Part shown: positions 9,701 to 35,037 of the stretch, piece after piece
How the letters are laid out: every line of letters starts with the position of its first letter
How positions within the stretch are numbered: the first letter of the stretch is position 1
Assembly: GCF_002929535.1 (NCBI RefSeq)
Contig: NZ_PJJO01000061.1
Location: 434,001 to 498,000 of the forward strand
Length of the DNA: 64,000 nt
Source: Cryobacterium sp. Y11
GTDB lineage: Bacteria; Actinomycetota; Actinomycetes; Actinomycetales; Microbacteriaceae
Reading direction: 5' to 3'
Translations under genes and position numbers: made by a program
The notes under the pieces: generated by a model
Databases searched by the model: none
The model's input: only the letters and a program-made list of their open reading frames with translations
Told to the model about the DNA's origin: nothing

Positions 9701-10771
9701 ATGTCTCGTACTATCAAACTCGCAGTCATTCCCGGAGACGGGATTGGACCGGAAGTTGTCGCTGAAGCCGTGAAGGTGCTCGGCGCCGTCACCGCTCGCG
9801 ACGACGTCACGATAGAGACGAGCACGTTCCTGCTCGGGGCCGCCCGGTTCCTCGAAACCGGCGATGTGCTCACCGACGCCGACCTCGCGTCGATTCAGCA
9901 GCATGACGCCATCCTGCTTGGCGCCGTCGGCGGCGTTCCCGGCGATCCGCGCCTGAAAGACGCCAACATTGAACGCGGGCTGCTGCTCGGCCTGCGCTTC
10001 GCCCTCGATCACTACGTGAACCTGCGACCCTGCACCATTTACCCCGGCGTGACGAGTCCGCTTGCCGCCCCCGGCGTGGTCGATTTCATCGTCGTGCGCG
10101 AGGGGACAGAAGGCCCGTATGTCGGCAACGGCGGCGCCATCCGCCGCGGCACCGCGCAGGAAATCGCCAACGAAGTCTCCGTCAACACCGCTTACGGCGT
10201 GGAACGCGTCGTGCGCTACGCCTTCGAGGTGGCCAAGGGACGAGAACGCAAACGCCTCACCCTCGTGCACAAGACCAACGTGCTCGTCTTCGCCGGCAGC
10301 CTGTGGCAGCGCATCGTGAACGAGGTGGCTCTCGAATACCCCCAGGTCACGGTGGATTATCTGCACGTCGATGCTGCGACGATCTTCTTCGTCACGAATC
10401 CGAGTAGATTTGATGTACTCGTCACCGACAACCTCTTTGGCGATATTCTCACCGATTTGGCAGCGGCAATCAGCGGCGGCATCGGCCTGGCAGCCTCCGG
10501 AAATATCAACCCGACGGGTCGCTTTCCCAGCATGTTCGAGCCGGTGCACGGCTCGGCCCCCGATATCGCCGGCCAGCAAGTCGCCGACCCGACCGCGGCC
10601 ATCCTCTCAGTGGCGCTGCTGCTGGACCACCTCGGTCTGACGGATGCTGCGACTCGGGTCAACGAGGCGGTCACCGACGACCTGGCGCGCCGCACCGCCA
10701 CGGCACGACGCAGCACGGCTGAGGTGGGAGACGCCATCGTGACGCTTCTGACAGACAAGGTACTCAAATGA
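9701..10771 (+). CDS. leuB: 3-isopropylmalate dehydrogenase
   Basis: NAD-dependent oxidative decarboxylation of 3-isopropylmalate in leucine synthesis. It has 356 residues. The N-terminus [21 protein letters not shown] is split across the usual GDGIGPE motif, the substrate Arg/Tyr region is present ([19 protein letters not shown]), and the C-terminal Mg/NAD site has [20 protein letters not shown] and [17 protein letters not shown] lies 5-6 nt before the ATG. ilvE follows with a 4-nt overlap, so the two are translationally coupled. The leuB-ilvE-FAH-gltX order resembles that of mycobacteria. Confidence 0.97.
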
Positions 10772-32003: not shown

Positions 32004-32795
32004 ATGACTCTGAATCAGCAGAGCACGATTGAACTTTTCACCGCCACCGCACGACTTCGCTACAGCGCACGCACCGACGTCGGTAGCGTGCGCAAGATTA
32101 ACGAAGACAGCATTCTTGCTCAGTCACCGGTCTTTCTCGTGGCTGACGGTATGGGCGGGCACGCGCAGGGTGACGTCGCCAGCCAGACCGTGTTGCGCGT
32201 GTTCGACGAGCATATCGCCAGGGATCTGCCGTCGACGCCGGAACGTATCCTCGATGCCATCCACTCCTCCAACGATGCCGTGCGTGATCTGAGCGCGGTC
32301 GAAGATTCCGGTACGGCGGTATCGGGAACGACTCTGGCCGGCATCGCCCTGGTCGATGCCGGAGACGAAGTCGGCTATCACTGGATGGCCTTCAACGTCG
32401 GTGACTCCCGCGTATATACCTACACCAACGGCGTTCTTCAACAGTTGTCTGTCGACCACTCCGCCGTGCAAGAAATGGTGGATGCCGGCCTGATCTCGAC
32501 CGCGGAGGCCGAGAAGCATCCGGAACGGAACGTCATCACGCGAGCGATCGGAGGCGACGAATTTGTCGACGCCGACGTCTGGCTGCTGCCGGCCACCGGC
32601 GAAAGCTCCTTCCTGATCTGTTCTGACGGTTTAACGAAGGAACTTGATAACGCGGATATTGCGCGGGTGCTGGCCCTGGATCTCCGCTTGGATGCTGCCG
32701 GGCGCACGCGCGCTGACATTCTCGTCGACGAGGCCATCGCGCGCGGAGGTCGGGACAATGTGAGTGTTGTCTACGTGGAGTCGACCGTCGTCTGA
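32004..32795 (+). CDS. PP2C-type serine/threonine protein phosphatase
   Basis: 263 residues, a catalytic domain only; no membrane helix or extracellular domain as in PstP. Metal-binding motifs: SVRKINEDS (about 27-35), FLVADGMGGHAQGDVAS (about 43-59), GTTLAGIAL, FNVGDSRVY (about 133-141), ERNVITRAIGG, SFLICSDGLT (about 203-212) and GGRDNVSVV (about 248-256). All Asp ligands (DG, DG, DN) are present, so it should be active with Mn2+ or Mg2+. It lies 37 nt after the TerC gene with no terminator between; a link to manganese supply is possible but unproven. Confidence 0.93.
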   Translation: MTLNQQSTIELFTATARLRYSARTDVGSVRKINEDSILAQSPVFLVADGMGGHAQGDVASQTVLRVFDEHIARDLPSTPERILDAIHSSNDAVRDLSAVEDSGTAVSGTTLAGIALVDAGDEVGYHWMAFNVGDSRVYTYTNGVLQQLSVDHSAVQEMVDAGLISTAEAEKHPERNVITRAIGGDEFVDADVWLLPATGESSFLICSDGLTKELDNADIARVLALDLRLDAAGRTRADILVDEAIARGGRDNVSVVYVESTVV

Positions 32796-32828
32796 GGCGC
32801 TCGTGCCGCACGGTGTTGGGCGAGGTGT

Positions 32829-32834
32829 TACCCT
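32829..32834 (+). promoter_or_regulatory. -10 box TACCCT before the leucine leader peptide
   Basis: TACCCT ends 6 nt before ATG 32841, the spacing seen at other leaderless starts in this window, so the leader peptide would be translated from the 5' end of the transcript. Confidence 0.45.
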
Positions 32835-32840
32835 GATGCC

Positions 32841-32888
32841 ATGGTGCTGAACCGACTTCTTCTGTGCCGCGACGAGTCCCTGTACTGA
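32841..32888 (+). CDS. Leucine-rich leader peptide of leuCD (15 residues)
   Basis: ATG-initiated frame encoding MVLNRLLLCRDESLY and a TGA stop. Five of 15 residues are Leu, three of them consecutive (codons CTT CTT CTG, 32856-32864). The three-Leu run ends 1 nt before the left arm of an 11-bp hairpin. This is the layout of a classical amino-acid attenuator leader, directly upstream of two leucine biosynthesis genes. When Leu-tRNA is scarce a ribosome paused on the Leu codons would mask the left arm and stop the hairpin forming. The peptide itself should have no other function. Confidence 0.72.
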   Translation: MVLNRLLLCRDESLY

Positions 32889-32906
32889 GGCCTCCCTCGT
32901 CGCGGC
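32866..32906 (+). promoter_or_regulatory. Attenuator hairpin in the leuC leader
   Basis: GCCGCGACGAG (32866-32876) and CTCGTCGCGGC (32896-32906) form a perfect 11-bp stem around a 19-nt loop that contains the leader peptide stop codon. No T-tract follows, so the stem may act through Rho, by pausing, or by blocking translation of leuC, whose ribosome binding site is at 32934-32937. Confidence 0.68.
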
Positions 32907-32948
32907 GTTCGGCGTGGCTGCCATCGATTCGTGAGGAAGACGCTCAAA

Positions 32949-34409
32949 ATGACCAACGTAATACCCACATTTGCCGTAGGTTCCGACACCGGACTACGCA
33001 CCTTGGCCGAGAAAGTCTGGGACAAGCACCTTGTCACCAAGGGTGAAGACGGCGCCCCTGACCTGATCTACATCGACCTACACCTGCTGCACGAGGTCAC
33101 CAGCCCGCAGGCCTTTGACGGCTTGCATCTAGCTAACCGGCCGCTGCGTCGGCCCGATTTGACCATCGCGACCGAGGACCACAACACTCCGACCCTCGCG
33201 ATCGACAAGCCCATCGCCGACCGGACCAGCCGCACCCAGATCGAGACTTTGCGTCGTAACTGCGCCGAGTACGGCGTTCGCCTGCACTCACTGGGGGACA
33301 TCGAACAGGGCATCGTGCACGTCGTCGGCCCCCAGCTCGGCCTGACGCAGCCCGGCATTACCGTGGTCTGCGGTGACTCGCACACGTCGACTCACGGCGC
33401 GTTTGGCGCGATGGCCCTCGGCATTGGCACGAGCGAGGTCGAACACGTCATGGCTACCCAGACGCTGCCGCTCAACCCGTTCAAGACGATGGCCATCACC
33501 GTCAACGGCGCCCTGCGCACCGGCGTGACCGCGAAAGACATCATTCTCGCCGTGATCGCCAAGATCGGCACCGGCGGGGGAGCCGGCTACGTGCTCGAAT
33601 ACCGTGGTGAGGCCATTCGCGCGCTCTCCATGGAGGGGCGCATGACCATCTGCAACATGTCGATCGAGGCCGGCGCCCGCGCCGGAATGGTCGCGCCAGA
33701 CCAGGTCACCTACGACTACCTCGAGGGTCGGGCACACGCCCCGCGCGGCGCCGACTGGAACGCTGCGGTCGCTTACTGGCAGACTCTGGCCACCGATGAG
33801 GGCGCAACCTTCGACGCTGAGGTCATCATCGATGCCAACGAACTCGAACCCTTCGTAACCTGGGGCACCAACCCCGGCCAGGGCGTGTCTCTGAGTGGCT
33901 CGGTGCCGAACCCGGCTGAGATCGTTGACGCCAACGAGCGTTCGGCGGCCGAGCGGGCGCTGGAATACATGGACTTGAAGGCCGGAACGCCGATGAAGGA
34001 GATACGGGTCGACACTGTTTTTCTCGGCTCCTGCACGAACAGCCGGATCGAAGACCTGCGGGCCGCCGCCGAGATCATCACGGGCAAAACCAAGGCCGAA
34101 GGGCTGCGCATGATGGTCGTTCCCGGTTCGGCCCGGGTGCGCATCGAAGCCGAAGCCGAGGGACTCGACAAGATCTTCCTGGAGTTCGGCGCCGAATGGC
34201 GCTTCGCCGGCTGTTCAATGTGCCTCGGCATGAACCCCGACCAGCTCGAACCCGGCGAACGCTGCGCCTCGACCAGCAACCGCAACTTCGAAGGCCGTCA
34301 GGGCAAGGGGGGCCGCACCCATCTGGTGTCGCCACTCGTCGCGGCCGCCACGGCTATCCGCGGCACACTCAGCGGCCCGTGGGACCTCGTTCAGGATGGA
34401 GACCAGTAA
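32949..34409 (+). CDS. leuC: 3-isopropylmalate dehydratase, large subunit
   Basis: Fe-S isomerase that converts 2- to 3-isopropylmalate with LeuD. 486 residues from ATG 32949 (AGGA at 32934-32937); a GTG at 32931 inside the same frame overlaps that site. Family segments: [19 protein letters not shown] (two overlapping motifs), [21 protein letters not shown], and the three cluster cysteines in [13 protein letters not shown] and [10 protein letters not shown]. leuD follows after 1 nt. Expression is probably controlled by the leucine leader upstream. Confidence 0.97.
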
Positions 34410-34410
34410 C

Positions 34411-35037
34411 ATGCAGAAATTCACCACCGTCACCGGCATCGCTGTACCGCTGCGCCGTTCCAACGTCGACACCGACCAGATCATCCCGGCCGTGCACCTC
34501 AAGCGGGTTACGCGCACCGGTTTTGAAGATGCCTTGTTTGCGGCTTGGCGCCTCGACCCGGAATTCGTGATCAATAAGAAGGAGTATCAGGGCGGAAGGG
34601 TGCTCATCGCCGGGGCCGACTTCGGCGTCGGCTCCTCGCGTGAGCACGCGGTGTGGGCGTTGCGCGACTACGGTTTCGACGTGGTATTGAGCCCCCGTTT
34701 TGGCGACATTTTTCGCGGCAACTCTGGCAAACAGGGTCTGCTTGCCGGTCAGATCAGCGAAGCGGATGCCGAGACGCTCTGGAACCTCGTCGAGTCAGCC
34801 CCCGGCATCGAGTTGACCGTGGATTTGGTGAGTAAAACGGTGAGTGTCGGCGATCTAACCGTGAATTTTGAAATCGACGATTACACTAAATGGCGGCTAC
34901 TCGAAGGTCTGGATGACATCGGGTTGACCCTGCGTGATGAAGCGCGAATCAGTGAATTCGAAGCGAAACGGGAATCATGGTTGCCACGCACCCTTCCCGC
35001 ACTTTCCCCCGAATCATCTCCTAATAGTTTGCAGTAA
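34411..35037 (+). CDS. leuD: 3-isopropylmalate dehydratase, small subunit
   Basis: 208 residues from ATG 34411, with GGAG 9 nt upstream and only 1 nt after the leuC stop; an in-frame ATG at 34396 lies inside leuC. Swivelling aconitase-type domain: [16 protein letters not shown] at the N-terminus, [17 protein letters not shown] in the middle (about 68-84) and [18 protein letters not shown] after it. It assembles with LeuC to form the active isomerase. Confidence 0.97.

What the first reader, a model, noticed from the sequence alone, without database searches (positions are those of the whole stretch)
32829..32948. Leucine attenuator before leuCD: leader peptide MVLNRLLLCRDESLY and an 11-bp hairpin
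The short ORF has three consecutive Leu codons that end 1 nt before the left arm of a perfect 11-bp stem. It lies directly before leuC, with a leaderless -10 box 6 nt before its ATG. Ribosome stalling at Leu would mask the arm. No U-tract follows, so the readout may be Rho-dependent or translational, unlike the enterobacterial leu operon. Attenuation of amino-acid genes has been predicted in actinobacteria, but I do not know of this leuC leader being described.
Basis: partly seen in the sequence, partly recalled or inferred. Interest (0 to 1): 0.75.

Follow-up and report, generated by a model that had tools for sequence, protein, structure and literature searches.

The report
Leucine-sensing RNA switch before leuC
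The short leader in front of the leucine-synthesis genes leuCD is a relocated copy of a known but little-studied RNA control element, in which the leucine codons of a tiny leader peptide seem also to hide the start signal of the enzyme gene until the ribosome stalls for lack of leucine.

Summary
A covariance model trained only on 28 leuA elements from outside the family finds two convincing copies in the 4-Mb genome: leuA and leuC. A leuC copy is present in 64 of 97 Microbacteriaceae genomes with leuC. In 59 further leuC leaders three helices are supported in permutation tests (0 of 5000 each): the hairpin, a loop-3' pseudoknot, and a stem in which the Leu codons pair with the leuC Shine-Dalgarno. 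The readout is therefore most likely translational: a ribosome stalled on Leu codons frees the start site. Other Actinobacteria have an IclR-family gene beside leuC (52 of 53 loci). Microbacteriaceae do not (0 of 28 loci; 0 of 60 genomes; control 23 of 24). A sister version with mixed Val/Ile/Leu codons precedes leuB in 18 of 89 leuB regions, which supports the codons as sensor. Mutant data cited in the 2005 paper speak against simple attenuation. Nothing here is an experiment.

The parts
32829..32834 (+). -10 box TACCCT of a putative leaderless promoter
   Evidence: TANNNT 5-7 nt before the leader start in 20 of 20 leuC leaders and 6-8 nt before it in 59 of 60 more
32841..32888 (+). leader ORF MVLNRLLLCRDESLY, stop TGA 32886-32888 in the hairpin loop
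   Evidence: direct reading; frame, Leu run and stop in the loop kept in 20 of 20
32856..32864 (+). sensor Leu codons CTT CTT CTG
   Evidence: leuC leader runs use CTT 40 of 65 against 3.3% of 761 Leu codons in the leuC genes
32856..32862 (+). 5' strand of base stem P0 (CTTCTTC), within the Leu codons
   Evidence: pairs with 32933-32939 in the minimum-free-energy fold; covariation by permutation 44/5000, 0/5000 in 59 further leaders
32866..32876 (+). left arm of hairpin P1 (conserved part 32867-32876)
32889..32892 (+). pseudoknot 5' strand GGCC in the loop, directly after the stop codon
   Evidence: covariation across leuC leaders 93/5000, 0/5000 in 59 others; only 4 bp in the window itself
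32896..32906 (+). right arm of hairpin P1 (conserved part 32896-32905)
   Evidence: A-U to G-C changes on both sides in 6 cells at two pairs, A-U to G-U in 3 cells
32916..32919 (+). pseudoknot 3' strand GGCT
32933..32939 (+). leuC Shine-Dalgarno GAGGAAG = 3' strand of base stem P0
32949..34409 (+). leuC, 3-isopropylmalate dehydratase large subunit
   Evidence: TIGR00170 727.7 bits, cut-off 560.25
34396..35037 (+). leuD, small subunit, overlapping leuC
   Evidence: TIGR00171 187.9 bits, cut-off 116.25

Best explanation
It is a LEU element, a translational attenuator, copied from leuA to leuC within Microbacteriaceae. By default (leucine plentiful) ribosomes start on the leaderless ATG, pass the Leu codons and stop in the hairpin loop; the RNA then closes into hairpin P1, pseudoknot and base stem P0, in which the Leu codons pair with the leuC Shine-Dalgarno, so leuCD is little translated. 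When charged leucine tRNA is scarce the ribosome stalls on the Leu codons; its body covers the 5' strand of P0 and the left arm of P1, the Shine-Dalgarno is freed and leuCD is translated. Shown here: homology to leuA LEU elements, the conserved leader, and covariation of the three helices. Inferred: ribosome stalling, its effect on leuC translation, the direction of the response, and the duplication. Possible and untested: Rho-dependent polarity as a consequence of untranslated leuC.
For: Model R1 from 28 leuA elements outside the family: window hit 37.6 bits, E 3.8e-7; genome-wide leuA 48.7 bits and leuC 37.6 bits, third hit E 0.886; 19 of 27 Microbacteriaceae leuC loci; 64 of 97 genomes with leuC. 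P1, pseudoknot and P0 permutation tests 0/5000 each in 59 further leuC leaders, controls 3342/5000 (pseudoknot) and 686/5000 (P0); family leuA P0 0/5000. The unconstrained fold pairs the Leu codons with the Shine-Dalgarno. Pyrimidine-ended Leu codons 58 of 65, CTT 40 of 65 against 3.3% in genes. A leuB version with Val/Ile/Leu codons on the same scaffold. S. lividans leuA leader is transcribed leaderless and lacks a typical Rho-independent terminator (passages of PMC8079986).
Against: The 2005 paper reports from its ref. 22 that leucine-codon mutations in S. coelicolor did not influence regulation, or had effects not consistent with classical attenuation, and proposed a binding protein instead. 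The permutation tests do not correct for relatedness (two controls with the same relatedness are not significant, which helps but is no proof). For P1 not every measure stands out: pairs changed on both sides reached in 78/500 shuffles, further pair types in 418/500, and sliding the partner by -3 gives as many double changes (6) and a higher covariation score (0.144 against 0.122) though only 73% paired. The first, wider pseudoknot test failed for the family. In the window the pseudoknot is 4 bp with a G-U pair. P0 is not supported in the leuB version (1260/5000; a downstream start was placed in only 12 of 20). Downstream starts were chosen by script as the in-frame start with the best Shine-Dalgarno and may be wrong in places (L017 looks so). 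Fold energy is ordinary (z -1.13). 33 of 97 genomes show no copy at leuC at the thresholds used.
Confidence: 0.72

Rival explanations
1. Transcription attenuation with Rho: a ribosome stalled on the Leu codons changes the fold or keeps a Rho site covered, and Rho ends transcription when leucine is plentiful.
For: No intrinsic terminator. Leader peptides without terminators before actinobacterial cys/cbs operons were tentatively ascribed to Rho in the 2005 paper.
Against: It does not explain why the Leu codons covary with the leuC Shine-Dalgarno. No Rho site was looked for.
Confidence: 0.15
2. Protein-binding RNA element: the compact pseudoknot is bound by a regulator, as proposed in 2005 for orthologues of ML1624, and the leader peptide is incidental.
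For: Reported insensitivity to leucine-codon mutations in S. coelicolor; compact conserved fold.
Against: Leader frame, -10 box and Leu run are kept in 20 of 20; the leuB version changes the codons to Val/Ile/Leu on the same scaffold, which a binding site would not need. The candidate protein was not examined here.
Confidence: 0.1
3. DNA operator: the inverted repeat binds a transcription factor.
For: It is a perfect 11-bp inverted repeat just downstream of the promoter.
Against: G-U pairs in the conserved stem (3 cells at one pair, 1 at another) and loop/3' and Leu/Shine-Dalgarno covariation mark RNA. The Leu run and its frame would be unexplained.
Confidence: 0.02

Closest known systems
LEU element upstream of leuA in Actinobacteria (Seliverstov et al. 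2005, PMC1262725; abstract and parts 1-2 of 3 of the text read)
   Same: Leader ORF with Leu run, pseudoknot, base stem of Leu codons with the Shine-Dalgarno; the window copy is found by a model trained on leuA copies alone
   Different: Sits at leuC, not leuA; seen at leuC only in Microbacteriaceae among the loci examined; 4-bp pseudoknot in the window; the parts of the 2005 paper read name leuA and one transposase copy, not leuC
Enterobacterial leu operon attenuator (Rfam RF00512)
   Same: Leucine codons in a leader peptide before a leucine operon (recalled)
   Different: No terminator-like site or U-tract; no Rfam match up to E 5
Leaderless poly-cysteine short ORF attenuators of mycobacteria (Canestrari et al. 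2020; only the title, seen in a reference list; paper not held)
   Same: Leaderless short ORF with a run of the sensed codon before an operon
   Different: Cysteine, not leucine; no sequence relation tested here
NdgR/LtbR (IclR family) control of leuCD (PMC4340878 passages)
   Same: Regulates the same genes in other Actinobacteria
   Different: A DNA-binding protein encoded beside leuCD; no such gene in the Microbacteriaceae examined

Membership tests
[quoted passage not shown]
   32841-32888; also in 19 of 19 aligned relatives
LEU element | Pseudoknot: hairpin with its loop paired to the 3' side | tested here: met
   Hairpin and loop-3' pairing 0/5000 each in 59 leuC leaders; only 4 bp in the window itself; a wider first test was not significant (519/2000)
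LEU element | Base stem between Leu codons and the Shine-Dalgarno of the gene | tested here: met
   7 bp in the window, in the MFE fold; covariation
LEU element | Sequence and structure similarity to leuA copies | tested here: met
   Model of 28 leuA copies from other families, 37.6 bits, E 2.4e-5 genome-wide
[quoted passage not shown] 6 of the 2005 paper) | not tested
   Figure not held
LEU element | Lies before leuA (original context, not a defining one: the authors give the name also to a copy inside a transposase gene) | tested here: not met
   This copy lies before leuC; a separate copy lies before leuA in the same genome
Enterobacterial leu leader (RF00512) | Terminator hairpin with U-tract | tested here: not met
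   0 terminator-like sites; no Rfam hit
T-box | Match to a T-box model in Rfam | tested here: not met
   no Rfam match up to E 5 in 32700-33100

The most novel reading that the evidence does not exclude
LEU scaffolds are a modular family of ribosome-stalling translational switches whose sensor codons double as the anti-Shine-Dalgarno and can be exchanged: Leu runs at leuA, second leuA copies and leuC, mixed Val/Ile/Leu runs at leuB(-ilvE). [quoted passage not shown]
Probability: 0.5. Interest if true: 0.75.

Novelty: new member of a known kind. Interest (0 to 1): 0.58.

Why it matters
How the LEU element works was left open in 2005, when its authors judged codon-sensing attenuation unlikely. 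The copies at leuC, the absence of the IclR-family neighbour in the same family, the covarying Leu-codon:Shine-Dalgarno stem and the codon-exchanged leuB version give a specific, testable mechanism and natural experiments. It would also show a protein-based control being replaced by a duplicated RNA leader. Rfam 15 gave no match at the window leader nor at the leuA and leuB copies tried, so annotation that relies on it would miss these leaders.

Tried and rejected
Intrinsic terminator: none found. Rfam: no hit on the window leader up to E 5; seven loci with leuA or leuB copies gave one sub-threshold hit elsewhere in L205. A first, wide pseudoknot test (whole loop against 38 nt) was not significant for leuC (519/2000) or the family's leuA (609/2000), only for other leuA (2/2000). 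I then restricted it to the zone where GGCC/GGCY pairing was seen by eye, giving 93/5000, 152/5000 and 1/5000. That restriction was made after seeing these data; the 59 leaders are the separate test (none identical to the first 20, but from the same bacterial family).

R1 hits judged spurious by eye: L063 (32.6 bits, E 5e-5), L048 and L073 on repetitive sequence downstream of leuCD, so scores near 32 bits in repeats are not safe; L187, L188, L190, L191, L203 and L204 show no convincing leader. A tree of the short elements did not resolve one leuC origin: 17 of 20 leuC copies group with all 30 family leuA copies (support 0.28; 16 with 30 at 0.92), 3 fall outside, and the largest pure leuC clade holds 6. 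P0 could not be shown for the leuB version. L272 was hit by R1 but has no clear leader. Formal pair counting was done only for P1, because MAFFT misplaces the pseudoknot strands.

Rows dropped: 2 of 60 leuA loci without a stem found by script (L133, L138); 4 of 64 leuC regions not resolved (G107, G020, G015, G146) and 1 duplicate; L269 (41 bases, contig end) left out, while the short L294 (90 bases) and L282 (412 bases) stayed in. leuB regions: 90 of the 127 genomes with a match, mostly the best-scoring, were looked at. The family scan list was cut at 150 matches and completed for 55 genomes, among them all 43 without a listed leuC element; weak hits away from leuC in the other 45 are not listed.

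Full report
The window lies in a genome of 4.03 Mb in 61 contigs, close to Cryobacterium: its LeuC is 94% identical to that of Cryobacterium sp. Y57. The described features are at the stated places: -10 box TACCCT 32829-32834, ATG 32841, leader MVLNRLLLCRDESLY, Leu codons 32856-32864, stem arms 32866-32876 and 32896-32906, leuC ATG 32949. There is no terminator-like site, and the two-hexamer promoter scan found none either. leuC and leuD are confirmed.

Conservation. Of 80 leuC loci from named genomes, 27 are Microbacteriaceae by title (that the genera belong there is recalled), and 19 of these carry the element; the 8 without are L011, L014, L016, L019, L022, L024, L030 and L032. None of the other 53 has one before leuC. 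The 20 leuC leaders (window included, picked for their stem) all have an in-frame leader with successive Leu codons, a stop inside the loop and a TANNNT box 5-7 nt before the start. Of 60 leuA loci (30 from the family, 30 from other families of the class) a stem was found by script in 58, and all 58 have such a leader, 57 with the box 4-10 nt before it.

Identity. Seliverstov et al. 2005 (PMC1262725; abstract and parts 1-2 of 3 of the text) describe the LEU element before leuA: leader with Leu run, pseudoknot, and a base stem of Leu codons with the Shine-Dalgarno. A covariance model, R1, from 28 leuA elements outside Microbacteriaceae scores the window leader at 37.6 bits. Across the genome it finds leuA (48.7 bits, E 4.9e-8) and leuC (E 2.4e-5); the next hit has E 0.886. 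On the 80 leuC loci the 19 best hits are the 19 leuC leaders; the twentieth (L063, 32.6 bits) lies in repetitive sequence and is judged false. The leuC copies are nearer to leuA copies of their own family (mean core identity 0.65) than to those of others (0.54), which suggests duplication within the family; the tree of these short sequences does not resolve it.

Distribution. Of 100 Microbacteriaceae genomes, 97 have leuC. R1 hits lie 11-261 nt before the leuC match in 54 (list cut at 150 matches). One search, which listed all 43 genomes without such a hit, added ten: 64 of 97 (worst E 2.7e-4), with G015 as a weak further case (E 0.013). In the first 40 genomes, where leuA places were known, all hits of the cut list lay at leuC, leuA or a second leuA. 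Exceptions seen later: an element with three Leu codons before an MFS transporter in G157 (47.3 bits) and a poorer one (36.9 bits) before another MFS transporter in G016.

Structure. On the 20 leuC leaders the stem has 10 conserved pairs, with changes on both sides at two pairs (6 cells; 0 of 500 shuffles reach 6) and G-U pairs; other measures of that call are weaker (pairs changed on both sides 78/500, further pair types 418/500, and a slide of -3 columns gives as many double changes and a higher covariation score at 73% paired). The 11th pair of the window is unpaired in 17 of 20. The free fold of 32841-32960 pairs 32856-32862 (CTTCTTC, Leu codons) with 32933-32939 (GAGGAAG, Shine-Dalgarno) unprompted, though overall stability is not exceptional. 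Permuting partners among sequences: P1, pseudoknot and Leu-codon:Shine-Dalgarno each 0/5000 in 59 distinct leuC leaders not used before; controls 3342/5000 (pseudoknot) and 686/5000 (P0). Earlier sets for the Leu:Shine-Dalgarno stem: leuC 44/5000, family leuA 0/5000, other leuA 100/5000. For the pseudoknot, in a zone chosen after a wider test failed for the family (519/2000 and 609/2000): 93/5000, 152/5000 and 1/5000. These counts are not probabilities, because relatedness is not modelled.

Codons. The leuC leader runs hold CTT 40, CTC 18, CTG 7 of 65, against 3.3% CTT in 761 Leu codons of the leuC genes; the 60 resolved further leaders hold CTT 108, CTC 61, CTG 23, TTG 1 of 193. Pairing with a purine-rich Shine-Dalgarno explains pyrimidine-ended codons. 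Rarity alone would also favour CTA or TTA, which are absent from these leuC runs (leuA runs hold 4 CTA and 2 TTG of 191). That CTT and CTC share one tRNA (recalled) is a further possible reason, but does not explain the excess of CTT.

Regulator exchange. An IclR-family gene (Pfam) lies divergently beside leuC in 52 of the 53 other loci (not L057) and in 0 of 28 Microbacteriaceae loci, window included (L008 holds only 639 bases upstream). At E 1e-35 its relatives are found in 0 of 60 Microbacteriaceae genomes and in 23 of 24 genomes of other families, chosen from those, as positive control. NdgR and its orthologues are described as located beside leuCD and regulating it (passages of PMC4340878); that this gene is their orthologue rests on position and family. 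The gene is missing also from genomes without a leuC element, so loss and gain need not be one event.

Sister version. R1 on 50 genomes of other families also hit seven leuB regions whose leaders have mixed branched-chain codons: MRFVLILRCRDGA, MRHALILRCRGGA, MRQVLVLITCRGGA, MTRIFVLPSRGGAR, MARQLVILSSRGEFR, MRSVYVLIDCRGGA, MQWSVRILSCRGGAR. Of 89 leuB upstream regions scanned, 19 were hit at E below 1e-3, and 18 of these have such Val/Ile/Leu leaders (whose filter required three such residues; none has three successive Leu). leuB identity was checked by NCBIfam for four, the rest by similarity; in L205 ilvE follows, in L213 it was not seen. In 20 such elements the pseudoknot is 4-11 bp, 0/5000 by permutation, control 2569/5000. 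Pairing with a Shine-Dalgarno is not supported there (1260/5000; starts placed in 12 of 20), and the stems lie 239-730 bases before the leuB match in the 18, so the readout may differ. Exchange of the codons on one scaffold is what a codon sensor predicts. The window's own leuB (9701-10741) has no such leader by eye in the sequence before it, and R1 gave no hit there.

Mechanism. The stop codon begins 22 nt after the last Leu codon, so a terminating ribosome would leave the 5' strand of P0 free, while one stalled on the Leu codons would cover both it and part of the left arm of P1 (ribosome footprint recalled). Hence masking in plenty and release in want. This is inference. Against it stands the statement in the 2005 paper, from its ref. 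22, that leucine-codon mutations in S. coelicolor did not influence regulation or had effects not consistent with classical attenuation (the primary paper was not seen). Such mutations might also break P0, so their outcome is hard to read without compensation. RNA-seq of S. lividans found the leuA leader transcribed leaderless and without a typical Rho-independent terminator (PMC8079986 passages).

Print status. Searches naming leuA/leuC leaders, LEU element, Microbacteriaceae, NdgR and leuB/ilvE leaders listed no paper that I recognised from title and abstract start as describing a leuC or leuB LEU element. Besides the 2005 paper I read one third of PMC4833913 and passages of it, and passages of PMC4340878, PMC8222616, PMC4046766, PMC13236596, PMC8079986, PMC5784534 and PMC3766115. 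The library holds open-licence papers only, so absence from print is not shown. Rfam 15 gave no match at the leuC, leuA or leuB copies tried.

Noticed in passing
L196, L205, L207, L210, L213, L214, L217, L218, L219, L226, L229, L230, L231, L235, L237, L241, L250, L267, L287: LEU-like scaffold before leuB with mixed Val/Ile/Leu leader codons in several other actinobacterial families
   Followed up: partly
L183 (G157:C1:759700-761800): A LEU-like element with leader MRQLLLRRDGS directly before an MFS transporter whose best NCBIfam match is MdtG (below cut-off); L184 (G016) has a poorer element before another MFS transporter
   Followed up: partly
L153, L154, L156, L158, L175, L186: Second leuA-like genes in some Microbacteriaceae also carry LEU elements (54-56% identical to the window genome's LeuA in the first five; L186 judged by eye)
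   Followed up: partly
L025-L084 (52 of the 53 loci outside Microbacteriaceae): Divergent IclR-family gene beside leuC; a TCTCA-TGAGA type motif recurs in the gap by eye
   Followed up: partly
window 9701-10741 +: leuB of the same genome, some 22 kb from leuCD, without a LEU-like leader
   Followed up: yes
window 32931: An ORF caller would start leuC at GTG 32931, upstream of the Shine-Dalgarno; ATG 32949 is the likelier start
   Followed up: yes
L063 5888-5968 -, L048, L073: Covariance-model hits in repetitive sequence downstream of leuCD, judged false by eye
   Followed up: yes
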